A stretch of 64,000 nucleotides of DNA from Christensenella massiliensis (GTDB lineage: Bacteria; Bacillota; Clostridia; Christensenellales; Christensenellaceae): NCBI GenBank assembly GCA_900155415.1, contig LT700187.1, positions 1,426,001-1,490,000 of the forward strand, given 5' to 3'. This document shows positions 1,298 to 29,603 of this stretch, in pieces; positions within the stretch are counted from its first letter, which is position 1, and the number at the start of each line of letters is the position of its first letter. The notes beneath the pieces were generated by a model. That model searched no databases. It was not told where the DNA came from and saw nothing but the letters and a program-made list of their open reading frames with translations. The translations under genes were made by a program, and so were the position numbers.

Positions 1298-1315
1298 AAT
1301 TTACTCTATCCTTTC

Positions 1316-2275: not shown

Positions 2276-2290
2276 TTTAAGATACCTCCC

Positions 2291-4305: not shown

Positions 4306-4416
4306 TTGGTACCTTTACCTCCCATAAATATTGATAGATCATGATAAAATGAACATAAATACGAGTCATATTCCATGGTGTTTCGATAGATAGAATAAAA
4401 TATCACTTTTGTAAAT

Positions 4417-16041: not shown

Positions 16042-16063
16042 GTAAGCGGAGCACGCTCCGATG

Positions 16064-16108
16064 TGGTTGCGGGGACAGGATTTGAACCTGCGACCTCCGG
16101 GTTATGAG
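16064..16108 (-). repeat. Attachment site copy: 3' part of tRNA-fMet
   Basis: 45 bp matching 26858-26902 at 43 positions. It runs from the anticodon loop (CTCATAA on the minus strand) through the T arm and acceptor to an encoded CCA. This is the chromosomal 3' half displaced by integration of the element. Confidence 0.93.
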
Positions 16109-16319: not shown

Positions 16320-16697
16320 TCATAATTCATGATTAAGTATCCAGTGCAGAAGCTGTTCATCGTTCATTGTGCCATCTGCAATCTCTAATCCTATGCGTAT
16401 CAAATCGTCATCTTCACAGTCAATTTTTATTTCGTTTAGCTCAAGAAAAGACAACATTGCCATAATCCCTACACGCTTATTGCCGTCTACAAAAGGGTGA
16501 TTGCAAATCAGGGAATATCCGAGCCTTGACGCTTTATGTTCAAGCGTAGGATATACATATACACCGTCAAAGGTCTGAAAAGGAGAATTGATTGCCGATT
16601 CAAACAGGTTTTCATCCCGCAGGCCATCTAAACCACCGGTTTCATCCAGCAGAATTTTATGCAGCAATTTGATTTGCTCGCCTGTCAACCGCTTCAT
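16320..16697 (-). CDS. doc: Doc-type (Fic family) toxin
   Basis: 125-aa death-on-curing protein. The Fic/Doc core motif HPFVDGNKRVG (about residues 66-76) is complete, with the N-terminal GLRDENLFESAINSP segment typical of Doc. Doc of phage P1 phosphorylates EF-Tu; related Fic proteins transfer AMP. The shortened Lys-containing P-loop of Doc seems present here. It overlaps the antitoxin gene by 4 bp (ATGA) and sits just inside the left att site, where toxin-antitoxin pairs commonly stabilise integrative elements. Confidence 0.9.
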   Translation of the reverse strand: MKRLTGEQIKLLHKILLDETGGLDGLRDENLFESAINSPFQTFDGVYVYPTLEHKASRLGYSLICNHPFVDGNKRVGIMAMLSFLELNEIKIDCEDDDLIRIGLEIADGTMNDEQLLHWILNHEL

Positions 16698-16936
16698 TTT
16701 GCCAGTTCCTCAAAGGCATGCCGGTTTTTTGCAAGAATCCTGCGCCCGATTCTTTCGACCTCTTCTGTTGCGGCCTCTTCTTCTTTTTGAAATTGGCTGA
16801 TCTCCATTAAAACATATTTTGGAGTATTATTTTTCAAAATCACCGCCGCACCGTTTTCGTCTACCAGTCTGGCAACACGAGAAAAATTTTGATTCGCTTC
16901 CGAAATAGATACAAGATTATTTGTATTGACATTCAT
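16694..16936 (-). CDS. phd: Phd/YefM-family antitoxin
   Basis: 80-aa antitoxin with the Phd N-terminal DNA-binding fold (NLVSISEANQNFSRVARLVDE) and an acidic C-terminal tail that should neutralise Doc. The start is set at ATG 16936, behind GAGGTGAG; an earlier in-frame ATG at 16966 has no ribosome site. Antitoxin-first order with overlapping stop/start suggests the usual coupled expression and conditional-cooperativity autoregulation (family knowledge). A divergent/intergenic space of about 110 bp to the integrase contains its promoter. Confidence 0.9.
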   Translation of the reverse strand: MNVNTNNLVSISEANQNFSRVARLVDENGAAVILKNNTPKYVLMEISQFQKEEEAATEEVERIGRRILAKNRHAFEELAK

Positions 16937-17050
16937 CGTTCTCACCTCTACTAATATTATACGCATATTTTAGGATAAATACAACCTAAATCATAAAATA
17001 ATATAGACGATTCGTCGTCTTGTTAGGGATTGACTGCGATTCCTGCTGAT

Positions 17051-18274
17051 TTATTCTTCCTTTTCTTTTTCCGATATTCCCATGCAGGCGGCAATTTTAT
17101 CCATGGCTTCGCTTTGTAGTTCAGGTAACACATGCATATAGGTATCCATTGTAATTTGTACCGACGCATGGCCTAAAAGCTGACTCACTACTTTTACTGG
17201 GATTCCTGCTTCCAATGCTCTTGTTGCAAAGGTATGTCTTAATGCATGAAAAGTATGATGTTTTACTCCCGCTTCGTTCAGCTTCTGCTGATAATGATCA
17301 CGAAAAGTCGCAGGGTCAATATAATAACCGTCCTCCCGGGAAAAAATCATGTCTAAATGGTGATATCCTTTTCCAAATCTCCTTTTTTGCTCATCCTGCT
17401 GTATTTTGTACCTGTCAAACAACTTTATCAATCCTTCTGGAATAGGTATCGTGCGGTTTGAATTCTTCGTTTTTGTATCATCCTGTATTCCTAACCGTGT
17501 TTTGGCCTTTGCGTTTGGGTTGTAATCCTTTAATCTGTTTACCTGACGGCATATCGTCAAAGTTCTATTTTGATGATTAATATCTTTCCATTGAAGCCCC
17601 AATAATTCGCCCAGTCGCATACCTGTTAATAAGTCTACCTTTATAGCTACGCTATATACATCATCGCCACATGCATTTATTAGAGCTTCCTGCTCCTGTC
17701 GCGTCAAGACTTCTACCTCTTTCTTTTTTGTATTTGTACTTCGCAATGTTGGAACATCTGCTATATCTGCGGGATTCTTTATAATTAGCTCGTGCTTCAT
17801 TGCCTCGCTTAACGCTTTATGTAAAACTAAAGCCACATTGTTCACCGTCTTAACGCTTAATCCGCCTTTACCATCTGCACGGCCTTTTTTCAATAGAGTA
17901 AGATACATTTCTTCGATATCAGCCTTTTTTAATTTATCCAACTTAATATGGCCGATATAAGGGATTAAATGCCTTTGAATAATAGTCTCATAACTGCTTT
18001 TTGTTGAAATCTTTACATTTTTATCCACATAATCATCAAACCATTTCAATAGCCACTTTGCGACAGTCATGTTTCCGTTGGATCTCGGTTCTATTCCTTT
18101 CTGATTTGCAATATAATTGGCTAATTTTGCGGCGACTACACTTCGTTTTTTTGATGTAAAGGTTTTGAATGTTGGTTTCCCCTTGACATCTCTGCCAATC
18201 ATAATACGAGCTTCCCATGTACCATCTTTCAAATGATAAATTCCGCCTTCGCCATTGCCTCTTCTTGAAGCCAT
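17051..18274 (-). CDS. int: Tyrosine integrase of the tRNA-fMet element
   Basis: 407-aa phage-type integrase: N-terminal AP2-like arm-binding region (GIYHLKDGTWEARIMIGRDVKGKPTFKTF split over residues 10-38), a SAM-like core-binding domain (about 75-165) and a C-terminal catalytic domain with TGMRLGEL (Arg), HHTFHALRHTFATRA (His-x-x-Arg), LLGHASVQITMDTY (His and nucleophile Tyr). It should insert and, with the excisionase-like protein, excise the element at tRNA-fMet. ATG 18274 follows GGAGGAGA; the upstream ATG 18295 falls over that site. It lies about 0.9 kb inside the left att copy. One DnaA-box-like 9-mer occurs by chance inside the gene. Confidence 0.95.
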   Translation of the reverse strand: MASRRGNGEGGIYHLKDGTWEARIMIGRDVKGKPTFKTFTSKKRSVVAAKLANYIANQKGIEPRSNGNMTVAKWLLKWFDDYVDKNVKISTKSSYETIIQRHLIPYIGHIKLDKLKKADIEEMYLTLLKKGRADGKGGLSVKTVNNVALVLHKALSEAMKHELIIKNPADIADVPTLRSTNTKKKEVEVLTRQEQEALINACGDDVYSVAIKVDLLTGMRLGELLGLQWKDINHQNRTLTICRQVNRLKDYNPNAKAKTRLGIQDDTKTKNSNRTIPIPEGLIKLFDRYKIQQDEQKRRFGKGYHHLDMIFSREDGYYIDPATFRDHYQQKLNEAGVKHHTFHALRHTFATRALEAGIPVKVVSQLLGHASVQITMDTYMHVLPELQSEAMDKIAACMGISEKEKEE

Positions 18275-18428
18275 TTTTCTGTCTCCTCCAATCAATTTAA
18301 TCTATTTGGGGGTGAACGAAAGAAAGCCCTCTTCTCCCCCGATCTATATAACGACTGAAGGAGTAACTTTCCGAGTAAGGAGGGGTTTATGCCAAATAGA
18401 CTGTATTGATTTGTGGTATATTATGGAT

Positions 18429-19037
18429 TTATGAGTTTTTTTCTTCTTTTACAAACTTATAAAATGTATTTGTTTTGAGACCTAATATTTTCATTGCCGC
18501 TACTGCGGTTATTTCCTTGTTTACCCATTTCTGATATATCTCATCCCAATTCTCCGGCCTTTTGGCCTTTGGTCTGCCGATAGGCACTCCTTTGGCCTTT
18601 GCATTTGCAATACCCTGCGCCTGCCTTGCCCTGATATTTTCGCGTTCTTTGGCGGCAACATAGGAAAGTATCTGCAAAACCAAGTCCGCGACAAAACGGC
18701 TGTCTATGGAATCTTTTTCCGTCCGCGTATCGAGCAAGGGCATGTCCAATACCTGTATATCCGCTCCCAATTCGTTTATAATATGCCGCCATTGTTCCTG
18801 TATTTCGGTATAATTACGGCCTAAACGGTCGATAGAAGGGATAATGATTAAATCACCTCTGCGTACTGCGTTCAACATTCGCTGATATTCCGGCCTGTCA
18901 AATGACTTTCCGCTGATTTTATCAATGTAGATATCCCGCTCGGAAACTCCGGCTTCCTTTAGGGAATTGATTTGCCGTTCCTCGTTCTGTTCCTTTGTAG
19001 AAACTCTCGCGTAACCGTGTATTCTGATTTCGCTCAT
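18429..19037 (-). CDS. Serine recombinase (resolvase/invertase type)
   Basis: 202-aa small serine recombinase. The catalytic Ser lies in GYARVSTKEQNEERQ near residue 11; the conserved segments DKISGKSFDRPEYQRML, DLIIIPSIDRLGRNY and the helix-E region with ERENIRARQAQGI are intact, and a short HTH-containing C-terminus ends the protein. Family members resolve dimers or invert DNA. The start is ATG 19037; GTG 19049 is an in-frame alternative. An inverted repeat (AAGTCTA 19091-19097, TAGACTT 19129-19135) lies upstream and could be a recombination or operator site. Its role beside a tyrosine integrase is unclear; there is no obvious invertible promoter. Confidence 0.92.
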   Translation of the reverse strand: MSEIRIHGYARVSTKEQNEERQINSLKEAGVSERDIYIDKISGKSFDRPEYQRMLNAVRRGDLIIIPSIDRLGRNYTEIQEQWRHIINELGADIQVLDMPLLDTRTEKDSIDSRFVADLVLQILSYVAAKERENIRARQAQGIANAKAKGVPIGRPKAKRPENWDEIYQKWVNKEITAVAAMKILGLKTNTFYKFVKEEKNS

Positions 19038-19223
19038 ATCCTTTACCACCTTTATCTGTGATAATGATATTATATAATAACTATTTACAAAAGTCTATGG
19101 ATTTGCAAATATATTTATAAAATATTTTTAGACTTAAATCAATATAAATCCCTATGGAGATTTAGGGGAAATGACATATTTGTAAAGGTGTACTTTTATA
19201 AAGGGATAGGGGAAGGAGGGAAG

Positions 19224-19281: not shown

Positions 19282-22059
19282 TTAGTTTACAATACGTCTA
19301 AAAGCATAGCTGTGATAGATTTCTCCAAACCATGTATAGGATAACAATTCTGCCGCCTGTGCAGGGTCAGCAAGAACCTCCGGCTCTATATCATACCAAG
19401 TTTCCCAATCTTCGCCTGTGCCTTGACGTTGCCAACCTGTCGTTTCCTCAAAGTAGACTGTTTGCAATCCAGTATTTCCGAAAGAAGAATTGGCAATTTC
19501 TGTTAAGCTTGCTGGAATTGTTAAAGTTGTTAAAGAAGTACAACTACCAAAAGCGCTTTCAGTTTCTATTGTTTGCAGACTCTTACTGAGATTTATGGAT
19601 GTTAATGATTCACAATATTGGAATGCGCTGCTTTTTATAGTAGTAATTGTATCAGGCATAGAAACCGTTTTGAGATTGCGACAAGACTGAAAACCTGCCT
19701 CCGCAATCTGCGTAACTGTCCTGCCGTTATAGGTTTCTGGTATGACTACTTCTTCAATACTGTCTCTGTACTGCTCGGCTATGGCTACGCTGACCTCGGA
19801 ATCATTCAGTATGGTAAACTTGAAATACTGCGGGTCAGTCGGTTCCTCCGGGTCAGTACCGGAGCCGGAAGAAGTGATCTTGCCGAGGTTGTCCTCTGTC
19901 CCATCGGTATAGGTTACAATCAGTTCGCCGCTTCCGTTTATCTCCATGTCAGCAATCCCGCGCCCATCTTCGCCGGGTTCGCCTTTATCACCTTTGTCTC
20001 CTTTGTCGCCTTTTGCACCTTTCACATTTCCAAGATTCTGAACGGTATTATCCGTCAAGGTAACGCTCAAATCTCCCGAAGCAGAGAGGGTAATGCTCTT
20101 GATTCCAACGCCGTCTTTGCCGTCCTGTCCGCTTGTTCCGTCCGTTCCAACTACTTTACCAAGATTCGATGTTCTTCCGTCTGAATAGGTCAAAACAAGC
20201 TCGCCGAGACCGTTTATCTCAGATTTTGTAATGCCGATTCCGTTCTCGCCCTTGATGTTTCCAAGCTCTAACCGCGTTCCATTGGTAAGCTCTACGGTCA
20301 ACGCGCCTTCCGGGGATATGGTTACATCAGAGATACCAACGCCATCCGTTCCGTCTGCGCCGTTTTGCCCATCCGCACCAACAACTTTACCGAGATTGAT
20401 ACTGGAAGAATCCGAGAAAGTAAGCTCCAGTTGACCGCTTCCATTGATAGACGCTTCTGTGATACCGATTCCATCTTTGCCATCCTGTCCGTCTGCACCA
20501 TCGCGCCCATCCTGACCGTCCTGTCCATCCGAACCGACGACAAGGCCAAGATTTTTGGAATCCCCGTTGGTATAGGTAATGACAAGCTCGCCGGACGGGT
20601 TGATTTCCGTTTTCTCTACGCCGATACCGTCCTCGCCATCCTGTCCGTCCGCTCCGTTTTGTCCGTCCTGTCCATCCATACCATCTTTTCCATCTTCGCC
20701 GACTACTTTACCGAGATTGGTGGAATTTCCGTCCGAATAGGAGATAATGAGTTCTCCTGCGGAGTTGATAGAAGTCCCTGTTACGCCGATACCGTCCTCG
20801 CCGTCCGCTCCATCCTCGCCGTCTGCGCCTTTGATTGTGCCAAGATTTAAGTTTGTACCGCTCGTCAGCAGGATTTCCAGTTCGCCGCTTGCGTTGATTT
20901 CAATCGTCTCAATCCCTACGCCGTCTTTGCCGTCCTGCCCATCTTGACCGTCCTGCCCGTCAAGGCCGCCGACTACACGGCCGAGGTTGTCCACCACATC
21001 ATCCGAATAGGTCAACACCAGTTCACCGTTCTGATTGATTTCGGATTTTACAACGCTTCTTCCATCTTCGCCATCCTGCCCGTCAATACCGTCTTTGCCA
21101 TCCGCGCCGATTACTTTGCCGAGATTGGATTTCTGCCCGTTGGAGTAGGTGAGTACCAGTTCGCCATCGGTATTGATTTCAGAGCCAGATACGCCGATTC
21201 CATCCGTTCCGTTCAGCCCATCTTCACCGACTACCTGACCGAGATTAACGGAATTGCCATCGGTATAGGTCAAAAGAAGCTCGCCGTTCCCGTTGATGGA
21301 AGCATTGGCAACGCTGAGACCATCTTCGCCGTCCTGTCCGTCCGTTCCGTCCTGACCGTCTGCACCTACGACCTTTCCTACATTGGCCTGCTGACCATTG
21401 GAGTAGGTGAGCACCAATTCTCCCTGCGGGTTGATTTCGGATTTTGTCACGCTTACGCCGTCTTTGCCGTTTACGACCGTGATTTTATCCAGATTGACAA
21501 CACGGCCGTCAGAAAAACTGATAAGAAGCTGTCCCGCGTCATTGACGCTCGCGCCCGTAATGCTCACGCCGTCTTTACCGTCCTGTCCATCTGCGCCGTC
21601 TTTACCGTCGCGCCCGTCCGTTCCATCCTGCCCGTCCGCGCCGTTCCTGCCGCTTGCGCCGACAGCCCTGCCAAGATTCAGTTCGGTACCGTCAGTGAGG
21701 GTGAGCACTAAATCCCCGTCAGAGGAAAAATGCGCCGTTGAAATGCCTGCGCCGCCTTGCTCCGCCGCAGCCGCCAAAGAATTGACCCATTCCTGCTCTG
21801 TACCGGAATATCCGTTTTCAACCGCAATATCATAGGCAGATTTCCCGACGAGGGAATCCAGCCATTCCTGCACCGTTCCTTCATACCCATACTGCACCGC
21901 CAGTTCATAGGCTGATAAACCATTTTCTACGGGTTCAGCCGTTACGCTTTGGGCGTCTTCGGTATTACTGTTTCCCTGACACGCCGATACGCTGAATATG
22001 ATAGCAAATGCCAAAACAGCGCATAATGCCTTTACAAAAATATGCCGTCCTTTTTTCAT
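19282..22059 (-). CDS. Collagen-like / BspA-type repeat surface lipoprotein
   Basis: 925-aa predicted lipoprotein: signal peptide with hydrophobic core and lipobox SVSAC (about residues 6-26); two short repeats containing YELAVQYGYEGT and YDIAVENGYSGT with EW(V/L)(D/N)SL (about 45-90); then 14 tandem modules, each a beta-like strand pair (pattern S-x-I-N-x-x-G-E-L-x-x-T-Y-S-x-G-x-x-x-N-L-G) joined by Gly-X-Y runs such as GADGQDGTDGRDG, one being GDKGDKGDKGEPGEDG. After a Pro/Thr linker comes a BspA-like leucine-rich repeat domain (IPETYNGRTVTQIAEAGF, LKTVSMPDTITTIKSSAFQYC). ATG 22059 follows GGAGG. It is probably an extracellular adhesin-like cargo protein. No sortase motif is needed, as the lipid anchors it. 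Function unknown. Confidence 0.85.
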   Translation of the reverse strand: MKKGRHIFVKALCAVLAFAIIFSVSACQGNSNTEDAQSVTAEPVENGLSAYELAVQYGYEGTVQEWLDSLVGKSAYDIAVENGYSGTEQEWVNSLAAAAEQGGAGISTAHFSSDGDLVLTLTDGTELNLGRAVGASGRNGADGQDGTDGRDGKDGADGQDGKDGVSITGASVNDAGQLLISFSDGRVVNLDKITVVNGKDGVSVTKSEINPQGELVLTYSNGQQANVGKVVGADGQDGTDGQDGEDGLSVANASINGNGELLLTYTDGNSVNLGQVVGEDGLNGTDGIGVSGSEINTDGELVLTYSNGQKSNLGKVIGADGKDGIDGQDGEDGRSVVKSEINQNGELVLTYSDDVVDNLGRVVGGLDGQDGQDGQDGKDGVGIETIEINASGELEILLTSGTNLNLGTIKGADGEDGADGEDGIGVTGTSINSAGELIISYSDGNSTNLGKVVGEDGKDGMDGQDGQNGADGQDGEDGIGVEKTEINPSGELVITYTNGDSKNLGLVVGSDGQDGQDGRDGADGQDGKDGIGITEASINGSGQLELTFSDSSSINLGKVVGADGQNGADGTDGVGISDVTISPEGALTVELTNGTRLELGNIKGENGIGITKSEINGLGELVLTYSDGRTSNLGKVVGTDGTSGQDGKDGVGIKSITLSASGDLSVTLTDNTVQNLGNVKGAKGDKGDKGDKGEPGEDGRGIADMEINGSGELIVTYTDGTEDNLGKITSSGSGTDPEEPTDPQYFKFTILNDSEVSVAIAEQYRDSIEEVVIPETYNGRTVTQIAEAGFQSCRNLKTVSMPDTITTIKSSAFQYCESLTSINLSKSLQTIETESAFGSCTSLTTLTIPASLTEIANSSFGNTGLQTVYFEETTGWQRQGTGEDWETWYDIEPEVLADPAQAAELLSYTWFGEIYHSYAFRRIVN

Positions 22060-22116
22060 TCTGTAACCTCCGCAATAGTGATGATAGAAGCCCGCTTCCG
22101 GGCCGCTTTTCATTGT

Positions 22117-22962
22117 TTAGGATTTTGTATATCTGCATCTATCTTTTACTCTGCAAACATGGCAGTTGGGATAACTTTTCGTACAAATCCCGGTATATCC
22201 CGTTGCACAGTAAGACCACAGGATGTAATCTGTCTCGGCAACAGATTTTCCCGCCTGCTTCGCCAGTTCTTCCACAATTTTCAACGCTTCATATTCTCCG
22301 GCGTCTTCTTTCTCCGAAAGGACGAGCCGTTTGCTCCCTAAAATCCGCCGGACATGCCTGTCCGGCTTGGCAATGTCATAGCCGACATTCCGCAGATACT
22401 CCGAAACCAAAGCAATCCCCATCTGCTCCATTTTGCTGTTCGGACTGCCACTGCTGGCTTCAGATAAAGAACGAATCAAATCTTTGATCGTAGGAAAAGT
22501 ATTGTAATATGCCTCGATACTGCCGTATTCAGCTTCAAATTCCTGTAATTTTGGTATGTTTGTTCTAATAAGAGCATCTAATTGCTTCTTCAAATAGGGG
22601 GTACCGCCTACGGTTTGTTGTATCTCTCTGTAAAGTTTGTCAGAAGTGGAGTTTAACACAAAATTCACTTCATATTGGTGGAAAATATTGTCAATTTTTG
22701 GGATTCTTCCGTGTTCTTCTATGAGTGGTTCCAGCCGCGTCCATATGATTCCAGAGCTGAGGAAAGAATACACCATTGCGCGGATGTGGTCTTGGATGAA
22801 AAAGGGTTTTTTAGCCTTTCTTCTGTCTATATGGTGTTTGATATGGGTATTCTCCCATGATTTTTGGGGATTCATACGCCAGACTGTTTCCCGCAGGTAT
22901 TGTTCCATCTGCAAAACGGCTTCTGCCGCCAATTTCAGACTTGTTTTTCCCATTTTTCGCAC
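22117..22962 (-). CDS. Endonuclease III-like Fe-S protein (HhH-GPD related)
   Basis: 281-aa protein not matching a named family that I recognise end to end, but the C-terminal half resembles endonuclease III/MutY. It ends with the 4Fe-4S signature C-x6-C-x2-C-x5-C (GICTKSYPNCHVCRVKDRC), preceded by a DYILWSYCATG helix equivalent to the LILHGRY region, and has KPDRHVRRIL matching the catalytic VDTHxxRV segment (Asp present). At the helix-hairpin-helix the LPGVGRKTA motif is replaced by MEQMGIALV, so the lyase lysine is missing. About 120 extra N-terminal residues are unfamiliar. It may be a monofunctional DNA glycosylase or DNA-binding derivative. Start GTG 22962 after AGGAGGGGG; 57 bp separate it from the collagen-like gene. 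Confidence 0.65.
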   Translation of the reverse strand: MRKMGKTSLKLAAEAVLQMEQYLRETVWRMNPQKSWENTHIKHHIDRRKAKKPFFIQDHIRAMVYSFLSSGIIWTRLEPLIEEHGRIPKIDNIFHQYEVNFVLNSTSDKLYREIQQTVGGTPYLKKQLDALIRTNIPKLQEFEAEYGSIEAYYNTFPTIKDLIRSLSEASSGSPNSKMEQMGIALVSEYLRNVGYDIAKPDRHVRRILGSKRLVLSEKEDAGEYEALKIVEELAKQAGKSVAETDYILWSYCATGYTGICTKSYPNCHVCRVKDRCRYTKS

Positions 22963-23021
22963 AACCCCCTCCTGTATCGCTGAAATTCTGCAAAATACCT
23001 CTATTCAGTATAAAACTATTT

Positions 23022-23040
23022 TCTCGTTTCATCAACGAGA
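23022..23040. promoter_or_regulatory. Inverted repeat in the divergent control region
   Basis: TCTCGTT-5 nt-AACGAGA, in the 153-bp gap between the leftward Fe-S protein gene and the rightward HTH gene. This is where a Cro/C1-type repressor would sit to control both directions. Confidence 0.5.
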
Positions 23041-23115
23041 TTTTAGTTTTAATAGGCCTTTTAGTTGTGCTCTATGGGAAAATAGAAAATAAAGTGTAGA
23101 TTGGTGGTTATCATT

Positions 23116-23487
23116 ATGACTTTAGGAAGGAAACTTCGTATTTTACTGGAAGACCGAAACATGACACAAAAACAATTGGCAACGGAGTTGAATATTGCTC
23201 CATCAACCATAGGGGGATATATTCAAGATAGTAGTGAGCCGGATTTTTCAACCTTAAAGTTATTGGCTTCCTATTTTCATGTAACTACCGACTATCTTCT
23301 GGATTATCACCACAATACAGCCGTTCATCAAAAAGAAATTGATGAATTATTACGCATTTTTGATTCCATGACACCGGAACAACGAGAATTGTATTTAGAG
23401 CAGGGAAGAGCCTTCTTGAAAATCAATTCTAAAAGAAAGGCCACATCATCCGGGTTGATTTCACAAAAAAATAAACAGATAAAATAG
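23116..23487 (+). CDS. Cro/C1-type HTH regulator of the element
   Basis: 123-aa protein with an N-terminal lambda-repressor-like HTH (LGRKLRILLEDRNMTQKQLATELNIAPSTIGGYIQ, split over residues 3-37) and a helical C-terminal half containing DELLRIFDSMTPEQRELYLEQGRAF, a common oligomerisation tail in element regulators. It is the only gene besides the next one that reads rightwards in the element, divergent from the cargo operon, so it is the likely master repressor. No LexA/C1 autocleavage domain is present; derepression would need another route. The ATG at 23116 is chosen; an in-frame TTG lies at 23101. Confidence 0.88.
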   Translation: MTLGRKLRILLEDRNMTQKQLATELNIAPSTIGGYIQDSSEPDFSTLKLLASYFHVTTDYLLDYHHNTAVHQKEIDELLRIFDSMTPEQRELYLEQGRAFLKINSKRKATSSGLISQKNKQIK

Positions 23488-23751: not shown

Positions 23752-24033
23752 ATGAAAATATTAGTTAAGCCTGTAACAGCCGCAGAAACTGTCTGCGAGC
23801 CTTACGACGATGAAATGTGGGATGTAAGATATGAGGAAGTACGCGGAGAAATTATGACCGCGTTTCGGGAAGGGTATTTAAGCAAGGCAGATTTCTTTCA
23901 TCTGATGGACTGTCTGGAAAATATCACGCCGGACCGTCCGTATGAAAACCTTTCGGATGAAAAACGGCAGCAAGCCTCTGATTATTTAGATACTTTATCC
24001 AATGATGTCCGCCAATGTATGCAGATGCAGTAA
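23752..24033 (+). CDS. Small acidic hypothetical protein of the element
   Basis: 93 aa, acidic, no signal peptide or membrane segment, no family recognised. A clear AAGGAG ribosome site and a strong terminator directly downstream support a real gene. Sequence highlights are DDEMWDVRYEEVRGEIMTAF and a helical middle with SKADFFHLMDCLENI; it looks wholly alpha-helical. It sits between the repressor-like gene and the convergent primase-helicase gene. Small acidic proteins in such elements are often regulators or DNA mimics, but nothing here proves that. Confidence 0.7.
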   Translation: MKILVKPVTAAETVCEPYDDEMWDVRYEEVRGEIMTAFREGYLSKADFFHLMDCLENITPDRPYENLSDEKRQQASDYLDTLSNDVRQCMQMQ

Positions 24034-24116: not shown

Positions 24117-26369
24117 TCAAAAGTTTATGTCTTCGGTGTCATCCTCCGTCATTTCTTGTTCTCGTGAAAAATTATATTCCGGAAGAGAATATACGGAATC
24201 CACCATTGGCATATCCTCGTCTGCAAGTTGCAAGCCTTTATAATAGGCTCCTTTACTATTTCTGTTCCACTGATATCCGGCTTCTACCAATGCTTTTTTG
24301 AAATCGCTTGCTGGTCTGACATACCGCTCCCCGGTATCTTCGCAATATTTTTGGTATGCCTTATACAATTCGCCGGATTTTACGGAAAGGCCCCCTCCTG
24401 TTTCGCAACGGTCAATGATAAAGTTATTTAACCAATCATTTTCCGCCCGGTATTGCTCTATTGCTTGCCGTACTACTTCGGGCTCTGTAACTTTGCAGTT
24501 TGATTGGATAAATTTTTTTGCGCCCTCTATCATCCATGATAGAATAGCTCCCCCTGCCTGATTGTAAAGAAATTCGGCGTAATTTTTTATATCATTCTGC
24601 TCCTCGATCTCCGCGAGAAATGGAATAACAACCAACCGCCGCCATGTGCCTTTGTCTATGGTACCAACTGCCGGTAAATGATTAGTATAAAGAACAATCG
24701 TATGTGAGGGAATGAACTGGAAGGGATCTTTATACTTTTTTTCCGCATAAATTGGATCAGTAGAGCACAGTTTTTTGACGACCGATGTATCGAGCCTCAT
24801 GCCTTCTTCCAATTCAGCCGCAATGATAAAACGCTTCCCTCGCAGTTCTGCAAACTCAGGACTTTTGTTTTTTCTGCTTCGTGATGTCAGTATCTCTGCG
24901 GATACCATTCCTGCATAACTGCCCAAGACGAGGGAAATAGCATTGAAAAATGTACTTTTTCCGTTCCGCCCGCTTCCGTATGCAATAATAAGGTTTTCAC
25001 GGAAAACCTTTCCGACCAGAAACATTCCTGCAATTATTTGCAGATATTCCTGTAAATCAGTATCACCGCAGGTAATTGTTTCTAAAAAGGTTTGAAACAG
25101 CTCGGCACCTTCGTTGTTTGGTTCTGCCGCCGTTATCTTTGTGCAGTAGTCCAACGGGTTATGCGGAGATGTCTCTCCAGTTCTCAAATCGACAAGGCCG
25201 CCGGGAGTATTCAGCTTCATTCCGTCAGCGTCAAGCAACGAAACATCAATCTCAACCATTGGTTGTACTTCACGCATAATGCCGGATATATGTCTGCTGT
25301 CCCTGCAACGCAGAATAAATTTATAATACGCTTTTTCCTTTTCGCCGTCTGCCGACTTTTTGCCGGTTAATGTCTGTAACTGCCATTCGGTTAGTTCCTG
25401 CGCCAATCCATGCACTTTGATTTCATCTTCAGACCAGACCGTGCCTGTATAATAAAGAAATTTTGTAGCCGCAGAATAACCAGTTATGTTTCCAAACACA
25501 TTGGCTAAAACCCGTGCTTCTCCTACATCCGTAAAGTCGCTCGGTTTCAGTTTTTTGGCTGTAGGAAAATTAAATTGCTCCGGCGGGATATAGTCTGGTT
25601 TTATCTGTATATTTTCACAATAATATTTTTGTGCTCCCCGCCAAATTTCATCTATTTCCTGCTGCTCCAGTAAGGGAATACATGTTTTTGACTTTTGAAG
25701 ATAGGCTTGACGGGCCGCCTCTGTATCTCCCCAACGCGTCAATACTTTCAGCGCGTATTTATGCAATGTGTTGTTTCTTTCCCCTTGCGGGATAATATCT
25801 GCTTCATGCTTGGAAGTGCCGTTCTGCGAGCAGGGGATGGAAACGGCAGAAGCCGTCTCCATAAAATTCAAAAGGCTGATCTCGCCGTCAACATACATGA
25901 CCTGCGGATTTTCCACACCGTAAAAGAAACGCGCCACGTCCTTTGCGTTTTTATCGAAGCCGCAAAAATATCGGCATACCCTTTCTTTCAACTGTTCATA
26001 TTCACCGCTATCGCAGATAGTATCATGCGGGAAATACACATGAAATTTTGGTCGCGGTCTTTTGCCGTCCTTCTCTTTCATGTGATTGCGCGAAAAAACA
26101 ATGTAATGTTGTACACCGGGAAAGCTCTTTTTAATGTCCTCGGGTGTAAGCCATTCATTTGCGTTATCACTATGTATGTTATCAACATCAAACATACTGC
26201 AATCAGCCTGAACATAGTTTTCTTTCCTGCGCCGATTGTCCTTATATTGTACGCAAACATGGTCATAGTGTACCGCATCACGAAAGTCATTCTCATTCAT
26301 AATCACCCTATGAAATGGATATTCCGCATTGGTGGCCTTTTGCTTGCATTGATTATAGAAAATTTTCAT
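24117..26369 (-). CDS. Primase-helicase (AEP-like N-terminus, D5/P4-type helicase)
   Basis: 750-aa replication protein. The N-terminal third resembles an archaeo-eukaryotic primase: acidic pair MFDVDN (about residue 59), the PRPKFHVYFP strand with the His motif (about 108) and a later RFFYG segment. The C-terminal half is a superfamily 3 helicase of the phage P4/D5 type: Walker A GSGRNGKSTFFNAI (about 465), Walker B-like RFIIAAELEEG, and sensor segment HTIVLYTNHLP, followed by a D5-C domain (YKAYQKYCEDTGER). It would initiate and unwind replication of the excised element. The AT-rich gap beyond the next gene is the likely origin. Confidence 0.9.
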   Translation of the reverse strand: MKIFYNQCKQKATNAEYPFHRVIMNENDFRDAVHYDHVCVQYKDNRRRKENYVQADCSMFDVDNIHSDNANEWLTPEDIKKSFPGVQHYIVFSRNHMKEKDGKRPRPKFHVYFPHDTICDSGEYEQLKERVCRYFCGFDKNAKDVARFFYGVENPQVMYVDGEISLLNFMETASAVSIPCSQNGTSKHEADIIPQGERNNTLHKYALKVLTRWGDTEAARQAYLQKSKTCIPLLEQQEIDEIWRGAQKYYCENIQIKPDYIPPEQFNFPTAKKLKPSDFTDVGEARVLANVFGNITGYSAATKFLYYTGTVWSEDEIKVHGLAQELTEWQLQTLTGKKSADGEKEKAYYKFILRCRDSRHISGIMREVQPMVEIDVSLLDADGMKLNTPGGLVDLRTGETSPHNPLDYCTKITAAEPNNEGAELFQTFLETITCGDTDLQEYLQIIAGMFLVGKVFRENLIIAYGSGRNGKSTFFNAISLVLGSYAGMVSAEILTSRSRKNKSPEFAELRGKRFIIAAELEEGMRLDTSVVKKLCSTDPIYAEKKYKDPFQFIPSHTIVLYTNHLPAVGTIDKGTWRRLVVIPFLAEIEEQNDIKNYAEFLYNQAGGAILSWMIEGAKKFIQSNCKVTEPEVVRQAIEQYRAENDWLNNFIIDRCETGGGLSVKSGELYKAYQKYCEDTGERYVRPASDFKKALVEAGYQWNRNSKGAYYKGLQLADEDMPMVDSVYSLPEYNFSREQEMTEDDTEDINF

Positions 26370-26381
26370 CTTAATCTCCTC

Positions 26382-26564
26382 CTATTTTTCGTAGCATACT
26401 ACATTTTTTGAGACCCAAATCCGTAGCTCTGCTACGGGAACCATCAGCCGTTTGCCTATACGCAGAACGGGGAAGCCGTCTGTATGAGCCAGCCGATATG
26501 CAAGCGCTTCTGATACGCCGAAATATTCAGCTAATTCTCGGATGCTTAATATTTCTTTGTCCAT
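26382..26564 (-). CDS. Excisionase-like / AlpA-like HTH protein
   Basis: 60-aa winged-HTH protein of the excisionase/MerR-like DNA-binding fold: LSIRELAEYFGVSEALAYRL then FPVLRIGKRLMVPVAELRIWV, the typical helix-turn-helix plus wing. Such proteins direct integrase towards excision or activate integrase transcription. Start ATG 26564 after GGGAGGG; 12 bp upstream of primase-helicase, so co-transcribed with it. It lies near the right end of the element, opposite the integrase. Confidence 0.88.
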   Translation of the reverse strand: MDKEILSIRELAEYFGVSEALAYRLAHTDGFPVLRIGKRLMVPVAELRIWVSKNVVCYEK

Positions 26565-26816
26565 TTTTTTCCCTCCCTTCTGATGTTTTGTATTGATATA
26601 GAAGGTCAAGGAAAAAGCTAAAATCGGTATTTTTTTAACAGAAATAAATTGTTTACAAAAAGTTCACAATTTTATGCCGTTTAATTTAAAAAGCAAAGGT
26701 TTTGACAAAAAATTAAAATTTTATTGAGAGAAATAATTTTGTTAGATAGTAAAATGACAAGAAATATTTAGGTTGATTTTTCAAAATTATAAGGGAAATT
26801 ATAAGGAAAATAAAAC
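26565..26816. other. AT-rich gap, possible element origin and promoter region
   Basis: About 250 bp, very AT-rich, with short partial repeats (for example AAATTGTTTACAAAAAG and AAAAATTAAAATTTTATT). No gene seen. It is the only long non-coding stretch beside the replication gene, so it probably holds the leftward promoter and perhaps the replication origin of the element. Confidence 0.35.
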
Positions 26817-26857: not shown

Positions 26858-26934
<77 letters not shown>

Positions 26935-27084: not shown

Positions 27085-27270
27085 CTATCTGTTCAGCCTG
27101 TCAGAGATGACGGCAAGTGTCTTGGCCGCACGCCGCAAGTCCGAAGCCTCCGCTTCGCTCAATGCAGCGTCATGATGGGTTTCGTAGAGTACTTCCAGTA
27201 TCAGGTTCTTAGCCTCCCTCAGCTTATCGGACGGTGTGCTCAGTTCCGTAATCTCGATTCCATTCCCCAT
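27085..27270 (-). CDS. Small hypothetical protein in integrase remnant
   Basis: 61 aa, charged and helical (SDKLREAKNLILEVLYETHHD, then EASDLRRAAKTLAVISDRLNR). ATG 27270 after GGAGGGAT; a TTG-type upstream extension is not needed. It overlaps by 4 bp in position with the extension of its neighbour and follows it closely, so the two form a small operon behind the truncated integrase. It resembles the short helical proteins found after integrases in Firmicute elements; function unknown. Confidence 0.55.
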   Translation of the reverse strand: MGNGIEITELSTPSDKLREAKNLILEVLYETHHDAALSEAEASDLRRAAKTLAVISDRLNR

Positions 27271-27281
27271 GCTATCCCTCC

Positions 27282-27494
27282 TCATTCCATATTTCCAGTT
27301 TCACATAATCCACGCAAACGGTCAACAAGTATCTCCAGTTTGAATCTCATATCCCGCAAATCGTCAAACTCCCGTTCCGAAAAATAGGGAGCGTCCACAT
27401 TGGCAGACATAGCATCCGTAACATACTGATACGCCTTATCCAGATTATCCGCTAATGTCTTTTTGTCCGTTACTTCTTCCGTAATCTCAATCAT
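27282..27494 (-). CDS. Small hypothetical protein in integrase remnant
   Basis: 70 aa with a good AAGGAGGA site before ATG 27494. It is helical, with TDKKTLADNLDKAYQYVTDAM and FDDLRDMRFKLEILVDRLRGL; the C-terminal helix resembles that of the following small protein, so the two may be distant paralogues. Lies 20 bp after the integrase fragment. No family recognised. Confidence 0.55.
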   Translation of the reverse strand: MIEITEEVTDKKTLADNLDKAYQYVTDAMSANVDAPYFSEREFDDLRDMRFKLEILVDRLRGLCETGNME

Positions 27495-27514
27495 ATTCTG
27501 TCCTCCTTAACATA

Positions 27515-27936
27515 TTACCTCACAGCCAGCACAGCGTCCAGCTTATCCGCCGCGTCGCTGTCCTTTGTCTTCAGGGCATGAGCATACACATCCAATGTGA
27601 TGGATGTATTTGCATGACCTAACCTCTTAGAGACCGTACAGATGTCCACCCCCTCCGCTATCATAAGGGTTGCATTGGTATGACGCAGGGAATGGAGGGT
27701 TACTTTGGGCAGGTCATGGCGTTTCAGGAATTTGGCGAACCATTCCGTTACCGTATCGGGATAAATGGGTTCTCCGTTGCTTTGGGTAAACAGCCTGTCT
27801 GTATTCACCCAGCGTTCTCCTATACGAAGCCTCCGTGTATTCTGCCATACCCTGTAATCTTTCAGCAGAGTACAGAGGGTAGGACTGAGCGACAGCTCCC
27901 GCCGTCCTGAACGTGTCTTGGATTATTTCATGATAA
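27515..27936 (-). pseudogene. C-terminal fragment of a tyrosine integrase
   Basis: The minus-strand frame reads SKTRSGRRELSLSP, then FLKRHDLPKVTLHSLRHTNATL (His-x-x-Arg) and LGHANTSITLDVYAH (His, Tyr): the catalytic domain of a phage-type integrase. An in-frame TAA stands immediately before SKTR (near 27930), and sequence beyond no longer resembles an integrase, so the arm-binding, core-binding and first catalytic Arg parts are lost. It is unrelated in detail to the element's own integrase. It marks an older insertion upstream of the tRNA. Confidence 0.85.
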
Positions 27937-28148
27937 TATAATTTTATTATTTGATATCTTCTGCCTGACCTCCCTGAATGTTTACAGGATTTTAAAATGG
28001 TTAATAAATAGAACAACAGTTCAAAAGTTTAAAAAGATAGAACTATAAAAAATATAGGTAAAATCAGCATAGATAATGGTATTTAATTATGAAGATGGAG
28101 AACCGATAGCTGCTTTACAGAAATTAAATATATGAGGAGAAGATACAA

Positions 28149-29126
28149 ATGTGCACAGCAATCACATATTACACAAAAGATCATTATTTTGGAAGAAATC
28201 TGGATTTGGAATTTTCTTATAATGAAACGGTAACGGTCACACCAAGATATTATCCATTTCATCTTCGCAATGGGAAAACGCTCGATCATCATTATGCAAT
28301 GATAGGAATGGCTTATATAGTTGATGGGTTTCCGCTTTACTATGATGCAACAAATGAAAAGGGCCTCAGCATGGCAGGACTAAATTTTCCAAACAATGCA
28401 GATTATAAAGAGGAGAGGGAGGGCTGCGATAATATTGCTCCTTTTGAATTTATTCCATGGATCCTCGGTCAATGTGCAAATGTGAATGAAGCAAGGATCC
28501 TTTTAGAACGGATCAACTTAGTAGATTTGAATTTTAGTGAAGAGCTGCCGCTTTCTCCACTACATTGGATGATTTCTGACAAGGGAAATTCTATTGTGGT
28601 GGAATCGGTAAAGGATGGTTTGAAAATCTTCGAAAATCCTGTAGGAGTTATGACAAATAATCCTACGTTTGACTATCAAATGTTCAATCTCAATAATTAT
28701 ATGCATTTATCTAAAGAACCTCCTGCAAACACATTTGCTGCCAAATTGGAACTTGAACAATATAGCCGGGGTATGGGTGCGATAGGCCTCCCCGGAGATC
28801 TATCATCCGTTTCAAGATTCGTAAAAACAGCATTTACAAAAATGAACTCGGTTTCCGGTGATTCGGAATTGGAAAGCATCAGCCAATTTTTTCACATTCT
28901 TGGCTCGGTAGAGCAGCAACGAGGCTGCGTACATCTTGGTGGAGATAAGTATGAAATAACAATTTATTCTTCCTGCTGTAATATGGACAAGGGGATTTAC
29001 TATTATACAACCTATGAAAACAGTCAGATCACAGCAGTTGATATGTATAGAGAAAATCTGGACGGAAACACTATAATAAGCTATTCGCTCGTGAAGAAAC
29101 AGCAGATCAATTATCAGAATCGCTAA
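28149..29126 (+). CDS. bsh: Bile salt hydrolase / choloylglycine hydrolase
   Basis: 325-aa N-terminal nucleophile hydrolase that cleaves the amide bond of glycine- or taurine-conjugated bile acids. The catalytic Cys2 follows the initiator Met directly (MCTAITYYT); the family residues are all in place: FGRNLDLEF (Arg and Asp), the Asn in SMAGLNFP, the Asn pair in GVMTNNPTFDYQ and the Arg in SSVSRFVKT. Length matches BSH (316-338 aa). Penicillin V acylase is the related alternative; the substrate loop cannot settle it. RBS GAGGAG. It stands alone between an integrase fragment and a tyrosine recombinase gene, in AT-rich sequence, which suggests acquisition by transfer. Confidence 0.9.
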   Translation: MCTAITYYTKDHYFGRNLDLEFSYNETVTVTPRYYPFHLRNGKTLDHHYAMIGMAYIVDGFPLYYDATNEKGLSMAGLNFPNNADYKEEREGCDNIAPFEFIPWILGQCANVNEARILLERINLVDLNFSEELPLSPLHWMISDKGNSIVVESVKDGLKIFENPVGVMTNNPTFDYQMFNLNNYMHLSKEPPANTFAAKLELEQYSRGMGAIGLPGDLSSVSRFVKTAFTKMNSVSGDSELESISQFFHILGSVEQQRGCVHLGGDKYEITIYSSCCNMDKGIYYYTTYENSQITAVDMYRENLDGNTIISYSLVKKQQINYQNR

Positions 29127-29603
29127 TGCCTGCAAATTTTAATTATTTAGACTAAGCGTATTTCAAAGCCGTAAATATTTATAGTACGTAGATATTACGG
29201 AGCGACTGTAAATCAAAATTGCATTATTAAAAGTAATGCCAAAGCCCCGCCTAACATTTCATCAAGCGGGGCCTTGGCATGTTGAGGTCCATGGTTTATG
29301 ATGGTGTTTGGCTGATTTTTTGAAAATTTTAACAAAAACGGGAAAGAAAGGACGGGGATGCGTATTTTGCAAAGATGCCCTCGTTCGGCTTTTTTAAAAT
29401 TTGTATAGTATGGAAAAGGGGAACATATTTAAAGCAATACAAAAATAACAGTATCCCGATCTCTATACATACTTTACAATTATGGTTTTCCACGTTATTT
29501 TAATCGAATGGAAACACCCTTTTTATAAATAAGACATATTTTATCCACATTCTGAGGTTATGTTAACAATGCGTAGTGTAACGCAATAAAATAGGAGGAA
29601 AAT
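29127..29603. other. Gap between bsh and the recombinase
   Basis: No supported gene. It holds a large inverted repeat at 29237-29279 (arms TGCCAAAGCCCCGC and GCGGGGCCTTGGCA with one bulge position; no following T run) that may protect or end the bsh transcript, and one perfect DnaA-box 9-mer at 29541-29549. Confidence 0.5.

What the first reader, a model, noticed from the sequence alone, without database searches (positions are those of the whole stretch)
22117..22962. Divergent endonuclease III-like protein lacking the lyase lysine
Seen: the exact C-x6-C-x2-C-x5-C cluster signature and the Asp-containing segment of EndoIII/MutY, but the hairpin lysine is absent and the N-terminal half is unfamiliar. 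Carried by a mobile element next to a repressor-like gene, it could be a monofunctional base glycosylase. Glycosylase-type anti-phage defence is known for modified phage DNA, which makes defence a reasonable but unproven idea; regulatory or replication roles are alternatives.
Basis: partly seen in the sequence, partly recalled or inferred. Interest (0 to 1): 0.7.

Follow-up and report, generated by a model that had tools for sequence, protein, structure and literature searches.

The report
Island-borne DNA glycosylase, possibly phage defence
A small mobile island in a bacterium carries an unusual relative of the DNA-repair enzymes that cut bases out of DNA; some of its relatives sit in or beside known anti-phage systems, so it may remove chemically altered bases from invading phage DNA.

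Summary
ORF 22117-22962 (-), 281 aa, has C-x6-C-x2-C-x5-C, a catalytic-type Asp (D201) and Ala184 where EndoIII and Ogg2 have the hairpin lysine. A confident AlphaFold2 model (pLDDT 95.3) matches HhH-GPD glycosylases, so the "unfamiliar" N-terminal half is ordinary HhH-GPD core.
The gene lies on a 10.8-kb island inserted in tRNA-Met (45-nt att repeats, integrase, xis-like gene, primase, repressor). Its 64 relatives form a near group A (mostly in similar islands: Xre regulator, glycosylase, variable gene, serine recombinase) and a far group B. Related islands without the glycosylase exist, so it is optional cargo.
By profile comparison the family is nearest to the "OGG" proteins of CD-NTase (CBASS) operons (97-98%; an Ogg2-like protein 90%, EndoIII 50%, MutY 13%), which share the KPDxH motif and lack the lysine. 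Some B members lie beside qatABCD, restriction-type genes or a C5 methyltransferase, or are joined to a PD-(D/E)XK-like nuclease.
Best reading: a monofunctional glycosylase serving immunity against modified phage or plasmid DNA. Fold and mobility are shown; activity, substrate and defence are inferred. New variant of a known kind: Brig glycosylases use the UDG fold.

The parts
22117..22962 (-). HhH-GPD-type DNA glycosylase gene, 281 aa, GTG start
   Evidence: AF2 pLDDT 95.3; Foldseek PDB prob 1.00 to Ogg2 and EndoIII
22393..22425 (-). codons 180-190, helix-hairpin-helix segment QMGIALVSEYL; Ala184 at the lysine position
   Evidence: alignments to Ogg2 and an Ogg2-like protein; 0 of 54 relatives have Lys there
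22360..22368 (-). codons 199-201, K-P-D: D201 is the predicted catalytic Asp, K199 a family-typical lysine two residues before it
   Evidence: aligned to the Asp of Ogg2 and EndoIII
22135..22185 (-). codons 260-276, predicted [4Fe-4S] cluster loop CTKSYPNCHVCRVKDRC
   Evidence: aligned with the cluster of the host's own EndoIII
22963..23100 (.). divergent promoter region; predicted -35 TTGATG (23035-23030) and -10 TATACT (23012-23007) for the glycosylase; palindrome CTCGTTGATGAAACGAG at 23023-23039 as possible operator
   Evidence: my reading of the sequence; CTCGTT-N5-AACGAG occurs once in the window and again in L019 at the same place
23101..23487 (+). Xre/HTH_3 repressor-like gene, divergent from the glycosylase
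   Evidence: Pfam HTH_3 E 3.3e-13
19282..22113 (-). collagen-repeat/BspA-LRR lipoprotein-like gene beginning 3 bp after the glycosylase ends; variable cargo
   Evidence: Pfam LRR_5 9e-23, Collagen 1.4e-12; other genes sit here in relatives
18429..19049 (-). small serine recombinase; relatives lie downstream in many group A loci
   Evidence: Pfam Resolvase 2.4e-32
17051..18295 (-). tyrosine integrase
   Evidence: Pfam Phage_integrase 4.2e-28
23752..24033 (+). 93-aa ORF of unknown function
   Evidence: no Pfam match at E<=1
24117..26369 (-). P4-family primase/helicase (D5-like)
   Evidence: NCBIfam TIGR01613 1.4e-74
26382..26609 (-). excisionase-like HTH_17 protein
   Evidence: Pfam HTH_17 3.7e-9
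16320..16966 (-). Fic/Doc toxin-like gene (16320-16697) and Phd-like gene (16694-16966)
   Evidence: Pfam Fic 2.6e-18; both have homologues downstream of the L020 glycosylase; the Phd name is by recall, that protein was not scanned
16064..16108 (.). attL: displaced 3' end of tRNA-Met, 100% identical to the tRNA 3' end of two same-genus genomes
26858..26934 (-). tRNA-Met (cat), integration site; its 3' 45 nt (26858-26902) = attR

Best explanation
It is a monofunctional, iron-sulphur HhH-GPD DNA glycosylase carried as an inducible cargo gene on a small tRNA-Met-integrated, primase-bearing island, and its most likely job is immunity. When the divergently encoded Xre repressor lets go of the shared promoter region, the enzyme is made, flips a modified or damaged base out of invading phage or plasmid DNA, and hydrolyses the glycosidic bond with D201 and an activated water. 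Lacking the hairpin lysine, it leaves abasic sites that block replication or are cut by other nucleases (some relatives carry their own PD-(D/E)XK-like nuclease). Shown: the ORF, motifs, HhH-GPD fold of the model, island borders, mobility, and kinship with proteins of immune operons. Inferred: DNA substrate, base excision, lack of lyase activity, repressor control, and defence. The target base is unknown.
For: Fold: AF2 pLDDT 95.3, pTM 0.92; Foldseek top hits Ogg2 3knt (E 9.9e-4, prob 1.00, TMt 0.63) and EndoIII 8a5f, 4unf, 1orn (prob 1.00). Chemistry: D201 kept in 54 of 54, Lys at the hairpin position in 0 of 54, cluster Cys about 95% kept. Mobility: att repeat and tRNA-Met; gene found in 1 of 41 near genomes, that being its own, and in 3 of 391 of its class, itself included; the tRNA-Met has no island sequence beside it in 2 same-genus genomes. 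Kinship: PADLOC OGG model E 3.4e-6; hhalign of the family against three OGG proteins 97.7, 98.0 and 97.3%, against an Ogg2-like protein 90.0%, host EndoIII 50%, MutY 13%, OGG1-like 1.4%; the OGG gene L016 lies by a CD-NTase matching CdnD 9ntn at E 1.6e-41. Defence neighbours in group B: qatABCD by L049 (QatC E 3.3e-56), a protein matching PADLOC mREase_IV, HEC-06 and Orf5 models by L046 with a relative by L047 (same cluster c77), Type I R-M models matched by 2 of 118 B neighbours, C5 methyltransferase by L061. Nuclease-like domain: fused in 5 loci (3 apparently the same protein) and adjacent in 3, of 64; its model matches PD-(D/E)XK enzymes.
Against: No experiment and no known substrate. In group A, the window's own group, I recognised no restriction, CRISPR or CBASS gene: 8 genes directly downstream or near in A loci gave 0 PADLOC hits at E<=0.1, and Pfam on 115 A neighbours (25 of 77 matched families shown) lists resolvases, primases, LRR proteins, one NADAR-DarT1 antitoxin, 2 PIN and 2 AAA_21 members. 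The full A neighbour set was not scanned with PADLOC. The partner gene is often a surface protein, as here. No match in 50,697 phage records. No control set for defence enrichment was run. Several B neighbourhoods look like ordinary genes, and the Cupriavidus relative lies near imuA / Y-polymerase / error-prone polymerase genes, that is repair. The nearest solved folds are 8-oxoG repair enzymes; Foldseek E-values are modest (one hit under 0.001).
Confidence: 0.5

Rival explanations
1. An accessory DNA-repair glycosylase (8-oxoguanine, alkylated or deaminated base) carried by the island for stress tolerance or to protect the island's own DNA.
For: Nearest solved folds are Ogg2 repair enzymes; the N-terminal half resembles 3-methyladenine glycosylase I; one plasmid relative lies near imuA, a Y-family polymerase and an error-prone polymerase.
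Against: The host already has three HhH-GPD genes over cut-off that read as EndoIII-, MutY- and OGG1-like; patchy, mobile distribution; relatives next to qatABCD, CD-NTase and restriction-type genes; Ala in place of the Ogg2 lysine.
Confidence: 0.22
2. A regulatory or life-cycle protein of the island (induction, excision, replication), using abasic-site formation or DNA binding to control the repressor switch.
For: First gene behind the divergent repressor in the window; an Xre HTH gene of cluster c1 lies upstream, divergent (16) or only codirectional (3 more), in 19 of 22 group A loci; in L026 and L030 the HTH and glycosylase are read in one frame.
Against: Three islands with a close small serine recombinase, the same HTH type and a primase or primase fragment have no glycosylase (L099, L101, L104); group B members mostly lack this setting (HTH c1 upstream in 0 of 35).
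Confidence: 0.13
3. Not a base excision enzyme for DNA: like the OGG protein of CD-NTase operons, whose role I do not know, it could act on nucleobases in another setting (nucleotides, RNA, nucleobase-protein adducts) or have lost catalysis.
For: Closest profile relatives are proteins of CD-NTase operons; type IV CBASS is known to use nucleobase-protein conjugation (PMC11996544, abstract); lacks the lysine.
Against: D201, W249 and the Fe-S cysteines are kept over some 50 divergent relatives, and some B relatives are fused to a nuclease-like domain, which points to DNA.
Confidence: 0.15

Closest known systems
OGG protein of CD-NTase (CBASS) operons (PADLOC PDLC00910; that this is Cap11 of type IV CBASS is an unsure recollection)
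   Same: hhalign 97.3-98.0% for three proteins; same KPDxH motif and D-x3-W motif; no Lys in the hairpin (Ala in L015 and L016, Ile in P0003).
   Different: No Cys cluster in L015, L016 or P0003; L015 and L016 sit beside a CD-NTase and a membrane-protein-like gene; no such gene was seen on the window's island.
Ogg2 8-oxoguanine glycosylase/lyase (MjaOgg, 3knt, 9o00)
   Same: Best solved-structure match in sequence and fold; catalytic Asp; an Ogg2-like protein scores 90.0%.
   Different: Ogg2 has the hairpin Lys, the window protein Ala; it adds a Cys-cluster tail; it is below NCBIfam's Ogg cut-off (26.4 against 183 bits).
Endonuclease III / MutY
   Same: C-x6-C-x2-C-x5-C cluster and Asp; HhH-GPD fold.
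   Different: No Lys (EndoIII); no room for MutY's C-terminal domain (ends 5 residues after the last Cys); hhalign only 50% and 13%.
Brig1 / Brig3 anti-phage glycosylases (PMC11078745, passages read; PMC13160076, abstract, Discussion and passages read)
   Same: Proposed logic: a monofunctional glycosylase makes abasic sites in modified phage DNA.
   Different: Brig proteins belong to the uracil-DNA-glycosylase superfamily; this one is HhH-GPD with a predicted Fe-S cluster, and its substrate is unknown.
Phage satellites / P4-like integrative islands (PICI and kin; features recalled)
   Same: tRNA att site, integrase, xis-like gene, P4-family primase, Xre repressor, small size.
   Different: No packaging, capsid or terminase gene among the nine island proteins scanned; no helper phage known; carries a serine recombinase and a surface-protein gene.

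Membership tests
HhH-GPD DNA glycosylase superfamily | HhH-GPD fold | tested here: met
   AF2 pLDDT 95.3; Foldseek prob 1.00 to Ogg2 and EndoIII
HhH-GPD DNA glycosylase superfamily | catalytic Asp after the G/P loop | tested here: met
   D201, 54 of 54 rows, aligned with Ogg2 Asp
HhH-GPD DNA glycosylase superfamily | recognised by the Pfam model PF00730 | tested here: not met
   no PF00730 hit at E<=1 in hmmscan nor at this place in the own-genome search at E<=10; only Ogg-HhH PF22175 at 0.0068, below cut-off
Endonuclease III (Nth) | hairpin catalytic Lys | tested here: not met
   Ala184; 0 of 54 rows have Lys; the host EndoIII-like protein has it (GVGRKTA)
Endonuclease III (Nth) | C-x6-C-x2-C-x5-C cluster | tested here: met
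   residues 260-276; aligns to the cluster of the host EndoIII-like protein
MutY | C-terminal 8-oxoG-recognition domain | tested here: not met
   protein ends at residue 281, 5 residues after the last Cys
MutY | Ser at the lysine position | tested here: not met
   Ala184; the MutY residue is given in PMC11754123 (passages)
Ogg2 | curated family model | tested here: not met
   NF002305 26.4 bits against cut-off 183
Ogg2 | hairpin Lys for lyase activity | tested here: not met
   alignments
OGG of CD-NTase (CBASS) operons | sequence/profile relationship | tested here: met
   PADLOC E 3.4e-6 on the C-terminal part; hhalign 97-98%
OGG of CD-NTase (CBASS) operons | operon with a CD-NTase | tested here: not met
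   no such gene among the nine island proteins scanned with Pfam
Brig anti-phage glycosylases | UDG fold | tested here: not met
   the Foldseek list is headed by HhH-GPD glycosylases
Brig anti-phage glycosylases | protects cells against modified-DNA phage | not testable with these tools
   needs phage challenge
Phage satellite (PICI / P4-like) | integrase, xis-like gene, primase, repressor, tRNA att | tested here: met
Phage satellite (PICI / P4-like) | helper-dependent packaging | not testable with these tools
   no packaging gene seen; no helper known

The most novel reading that the evidence does not exclude
The KPD branch of the HhH-GPD superfamily is a general immune glycosylase module, separate from repair enzymes: it serves CD-NTase operons (the OGG protein), qat- and restriction-linked loci, fusions to PD-(D/E)XK-like nucleases, and satellite-like islands such as this one. 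Its branch-specific lysine two residues before the catalytic Asp takes over, or tunes, the chemistry that the hairpin lysine performs in EndoIII and Ogg2, so these enzymes excise modified phage bases and may still nick the DNA by a rewired lyase.
Probability: 0.25. Interest if true: 0.8.

Novelty: new variant of a known kind. Interest (0 to 1): 0.6.

Why it matters
Known anti-phage DNA glycosylases (Brig1, Brig3) come from the uracil-DNA-glycosylase superfamily. If this family works in defence, a second, unrelated glycosylase fold has been recruited for the same purpose, with an iron-sulphur cluster and nuclease-fused versions, and the OGG protein of CD-NTase operons (whose role I do not know) gets a testable model: base excision without the lyase lysine. 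It also points to a recurrent class of small primase islands, seen here in records titled as Clostridia, whose cargo slot holds glycosylases, surface proteins or both.

Tried and rejected
Rejected: (a) plain EndoIII or MutY: lysine or C-terminal domain missing, weak profile scores. (b) Ordinary host repair gene: absent from the 5 other same-genus genomes searched, and the host has three other HhH-GPD genes over cut-off. (c) Phage gene: no tblastn match of the window protein, nor of relative P0004, in the phage records; the two relatives in IMG/VR contigs are group B. (d) Backbone gene of the island: sister islands lack it. (e) Base-hypermodification enzyme (recalled alpha-glutamyl/putrescinyl-thymine pyrophosphorylase kin; one viral Foldseek hit named '5-hmdU DNA kinase helical domain' at prob 0.13): no Pfam model of that kind was listed for the proteins scanned.

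Led nowhere or spoke against: PHROGs (best 9e-4 for one relative, unknown function); PADLOC on downstream genes; solved-structure search for the N-terminal domains of L051 and L046, which by recall look like a MazG-type and a deoxyribosyltransferase-type domain, not confirmed; single-sequence and three-row viral-contig scans. Att repeats at other loci: of 9 tRNA/tmRNA genes tested in 8 sources only the window's gave one. Operator: my palindrome finder did not flag the window (it flagged L104, L022, L026, L030 and L035); the motif was read by eye, and the shuffle figures (0 of 200 for the window and L019) used a pattern built from the window, L019 and L104, so they are not independent; the other loci do not carry it. 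The left flank of the island is not conserved in the genus, so a full empty site could not be shown.

Literature searches in which I found no report of this family: (listings; open-licence PubMed Central only).

Full report
What is there. ORF 22117-22962 (-) encodes 281 residues from a GTG start. It carries C260-x6-C267-x2-C270-x5-C276, a K199-P200-D201-R-H203 segment, and Ala184 at the place of the Ogg2 hairpin lysine. Pfam gives only a sub-threshold Ogg-HhH match (E 0.0068); NCBIfam's Ogg model scores 26.4 bits against a cut-off of 183. Solved-structure searches hit Ogg2 (9o02, E 7.1e-6) and, with the family profile, Ogg2 (9o00, 4.4e-7) on the C-terminal half and 3-methyladenine glycosylase I (4ai4, 2.8e-5) on the N-terminal half.

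Fold. An alignment of 47 rows gave an AlphaFold2 model with pLDDT 95.3 and pTM 0.92. Foldseek against the PDB puts Ogg2 (3knt, E 9.9e-4, prob 1.00; 3n0u TMt 0.67) and EndoIII (8a5f, 4unf, 1orn, prob 1.00) on top, with MutY, a thymine-DNA glycosylase, Mag2, TAG and ROS1 below. So the fold is HhH-GPD and the N-terminal half is not a new domain. No coordinates could be measured here, so the position of K199 in the pocket is untested.

Conservation. In 55 rows of 230 aa or more (recounted; near-copies and partial copies included): D201 54 of 54; W249 54 of 54; H203 55 of 55; Cys260 50 of 52, Cys267 48 of 52, Cys270 50 of 51, Cys276 48 of 50; position 184 Ala 45, Pro 5, Glu 2, Val 1, Thr 1, Lys 0 of 54. 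K199 is 54 of 54, but the genome scan that brought most rows used the pattern KPDxH[VIL][RC]R[IF][LAF], so that figure is biased. In nine rows not chosen by that motif (A4: the window plus relatives found by whole-protein or profile searches) K199 is Lys in 8 of 9 (Asn in L012), position 184 is Ala in 7 of 9 (Asp, Ile in the others), and D201 is kept in 9 of 9.

The island. A 45-nt direct repeat (43 of 45 identical) joins 16064-16108 to the 3' end of tRNA-Met at 26858-26902 (tRNA). Between them lie Fic/Doc- and Phd-like genes, a tyrosine integrase, a small serine recombinase, a collagen/BspA-type lipoprotein-like gene, the glycosylase, a divergent HTH_3 gene, a 93-aa ORF, a P4-family primase and an HTH_17 excisionase-like gene. 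No conjugation or packaging gene was seen among the nine proteins scanned. The gene is absent from the five other same-genus genomes searched (1 of 41 near genomes has it, its own). In two of these (G004, G001) the tRNA-Met, with the same gene on one side (window 28135-29201), has no island sequence in the 5.4-5.6 kb fetched on the other side, and their tRNA 3' ends match the window's 16062-16108 copy at 100%. The far flank is not conserved.

Relatives. One genome-contig scan gave 62 loci and one viral scan 2. I grouped them by identity and neighbours: A, 21 loci plus the window (42-49% identity to the window for the 18 A rows in A6); B, 35 loci; 8 loci left ungrouped. A maximum-likelihood tree of 51 rows keeps A together only weakly (42/82 support, 40% of bootstrap trees), so A is a working group, not a proven clade; three of the four OGG rows fall outside all others (100/98), the fourth (L013) groups with the archaeal row L074, and long branches were flagged. 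Record titles in B include Fusobacteria, Spirochaetales, Paludibacteraceae and a proteobacterium beside Clostridia, which suggests horizontal transfer or binning error.

Group A neighbourhood (n = 22 with the window; several contigs are cut short). A divergent Xre HTH gene (cluster c1) lies within 400 bp upstream in 16, and a codirectional small HTH gene in 7, either in 19. A codirectional gene follows within 100 bp in 20. A serine recombinase lies within 6 kb downstream in 15, against 1 of 35 in B. The downstream gene differs: clusters c6, c7, c40, LRR/BspA proteins, lipoprotein-like genes; one c7 member has a weak match to the SMODS-associated 4TM effector domain (E 0.019, below cut-off). 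L024 reads as a whole island between tRNA-Met and feoB with primase, HTH, glycosylase, c6 gene, small and large serine recombinases, and L021 has a similar order after a tmRNA gene, but no att repeat was found there. Of 115 A neighbours scanned with Pfam, 12 matched HTH_3, 10 Resolvase, 4 VapE-like, 4 reverse transcriptase, 2 D5_N and 1 NADAR-DarT1 antitoxin (25 of 77 families shown).

Cargo, not backbone. Searching 391 genomes of the class with the small serine recombinase of L024 gave 12 genomes at E<=1e-50. I fetched all 12 regions (L104 and L110 end early at contig ends). In three (L099, L101, L104) the same HTH type and a primase (a fragment in L101) flank an operon with other genes: a 284-aa protein plus BspA and cohesin proteins (L099), SLH and copper-amine-oxidase-N proteins (L101), a protein with a sub-threshold ea8.5 match plus an LRR protein (L104). 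No ORF in any of the 12 regions was listed as a glycosylase match; the other nine show the recombinase with at most a large recombinase or a weak HTH match.

Kinship with immune proteins. The PADLOC OGG model matches the window at 3.4e-6 and relatives P0003, L013, L015 and L016 at 1.6e-27, 2.1e-14, 2.2e-84 and 1.4e-86; L012 has no match. hhalign of the family profile gives 97.7% (L016, E 1.9e-12), 98.0% (L015) and 97.3% (P0003) against OGG proteins, 90.0% (E 1.7e-6) against an Ogg2-like protein L131, 50% against the host's EndoIII-like, 13% MutY-like, 1.4% OGG1-like protein (single sequences on one side throughout). L016 is preceded, by my reading of the strand, by a membrane-protein-like gene and a CD-NTase that matches CdnD (9ntn, E 1.6e-41); SMODS matches lie about 1.4 kb from the OGG match in both G539 and G471. 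PDB 9NTO is Cap9-CdnD of type IV CBASS by PMC13279940 (passages). That PADLOC's OGG is Cap11 is an unsure recollection: one review says type IV holds cap9-11 (PMC10002423, passage), and the Ogg2-like L131 protein, which keeps the lysine (GIGPKQA), is the one whose neighbours read as QueC-like, TGT-like and TIR-like (by eye).

Group B neighbours. L049: a qatABCD-like operon directly upstream; QatC E 3.3e-56 to 9zee; the QatB-like protein begins MGTS as the paper describes; QatA- and TatD-like by reading only. L046: the upstream protein matches PADLOC Orf5, HEC-06 and mREase_IV models, which I read as DUF262/GmrSD-like. L047: a relative of that protein (cluster c77) and HsdR/M/S-like genes; Type I models were matched by 2 of the 118 neighbour proteins scanned, which the output does not name. 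L061: C5 methyltransferase; the next gene had no match. A roughly 140-residue domain is fused to the glycosylase in 5 loci (L038-L040 apparently the same protein, L047, L055) and is the next gene in 3 (L058, L069, L082, 92-93% alike), and was not found elsewhere in these loci. Its model (pLDDT 86.8, but 55-65 for the other four models) matches PD-(D/E)XK enzymes such as McrC, lambda exonuclease and SSO0001, none under E 0.001; the top hit is AF1548, of unknown function. DUF1653 is fused in L043 and L045, DUF6508 in L058. Many other B loci have neighbours that look like ordinary metabolic or unknown genes; no control for enrichment was run.

Control region. The 138-bp gap between glycosylase and HTH gene holds, by eye, a TTGATG-N17-TATACT promoter for the glycosylase and a palindrome CTCGTTGATGAAACGAG over its -35. 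The half-site pair recurs in L019 at the same place; other loci do not carry it, my unbiased palindrome finder did not flag the window, and the shuffle test is not independent.

Function. Fold, Asp and Fe-S loop argue for an active base-excision enzyme. Loss of the lysine is no oddity: PMC11754123 lists Trp (AlkA), Tyr (MIG) and Ser (MutY) at that site (passages), and also describes an enzyme without it that still has lyase activity, so 'monofunctional' is a prediction. Brig1 and Brig3 show that glycosylases can defend by making abasic sites in modified phage DNA, but from the UDG superfamily (PMC11078745, passages; PMC13160076, Discussion). I put the defence reading at about one half: good for the family, indirect for this gene, whose own group shows surface-protein partners and no clear defence neighbour.

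Noticed in passing
L015, L016 (PADLOC OGG proteins beside CD-NTase genes): They have Ala at the hairpin-lysine position (LGPATS, MGPATS) and KPD, so a glycosylase/lyase label may overstate lyase activity.
   Followed up: partly
L131:399-3563: An Ogg2-like protein that keeps the lysine (1474-2172) lies in a row with genes that read as TIR-, QueC- and TGT-like: a possible relative of type IV CBASS/qat-type systems.
   Followed up: no
L049:4519-9261: qatABCD-like operon with a type I restriction-like gene upstream (1193-4402), in a contig titled Fusobacteria, directly before a group B glycosylase.
   Followed up: partly
L058:10701-11129, L069:10609-11037, L082:4208-4636, and N-terminal parts in L038-L040, L047, L055: A nuclease-like family (FD...ECK motif, PD-(D/E)XK-like model) for which Pfam gave nothing in L058, L038, L055 and L047; seen only fused to or directly after the glycosylase.
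   Followed up: partly
L026:9761-10834, L030:9761-10813: Xre HTH domain read in frame with the glycosylase (357 and 350 aa); the two are near-identical.
   Followed up: no
L035, L041, L053, L061, L069, L076, L011/L017: Broken or partial glycosylase copies (split ORFs, fragments, one insertion that reads as IS3-like), suggesting fast turnover, though draft-assembly errors are possible.
   Followed up: no
19282-22113: 943-aa lipoprotein-like gene with collagen-type repeats and a C-terminal BspA LRR region, beginning 3 bp after the glycosylase.
   Followed up: partly
16320-16966: Fic/Doc- and Phd-like pair near the integrase end of the island; homologues of both lie downstream of the L020 glycosylase.
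   Followed up: partly
27085-27808: What looks like remnants of another element, including a 97-aa C-terminal integrase-like fragment (27515-27808), on the other side of the tRNA-Met.
   Followed up: no
L099, L101, L104: Small primase islands with the same HTH type and serine recombinase but surface-protein cargo; L099 has a large serine recombinase, L101 an integrase that reads like the window's: a modular island class.
   Followed up: partly
L005 (Cupriavidus pinatubonensis plasmid): A distant relative without the Cys cluster lies near imuA, a Y-family polymerase and an error-prone polymerase (SOS mutagenesis genes).
   Followed up: no
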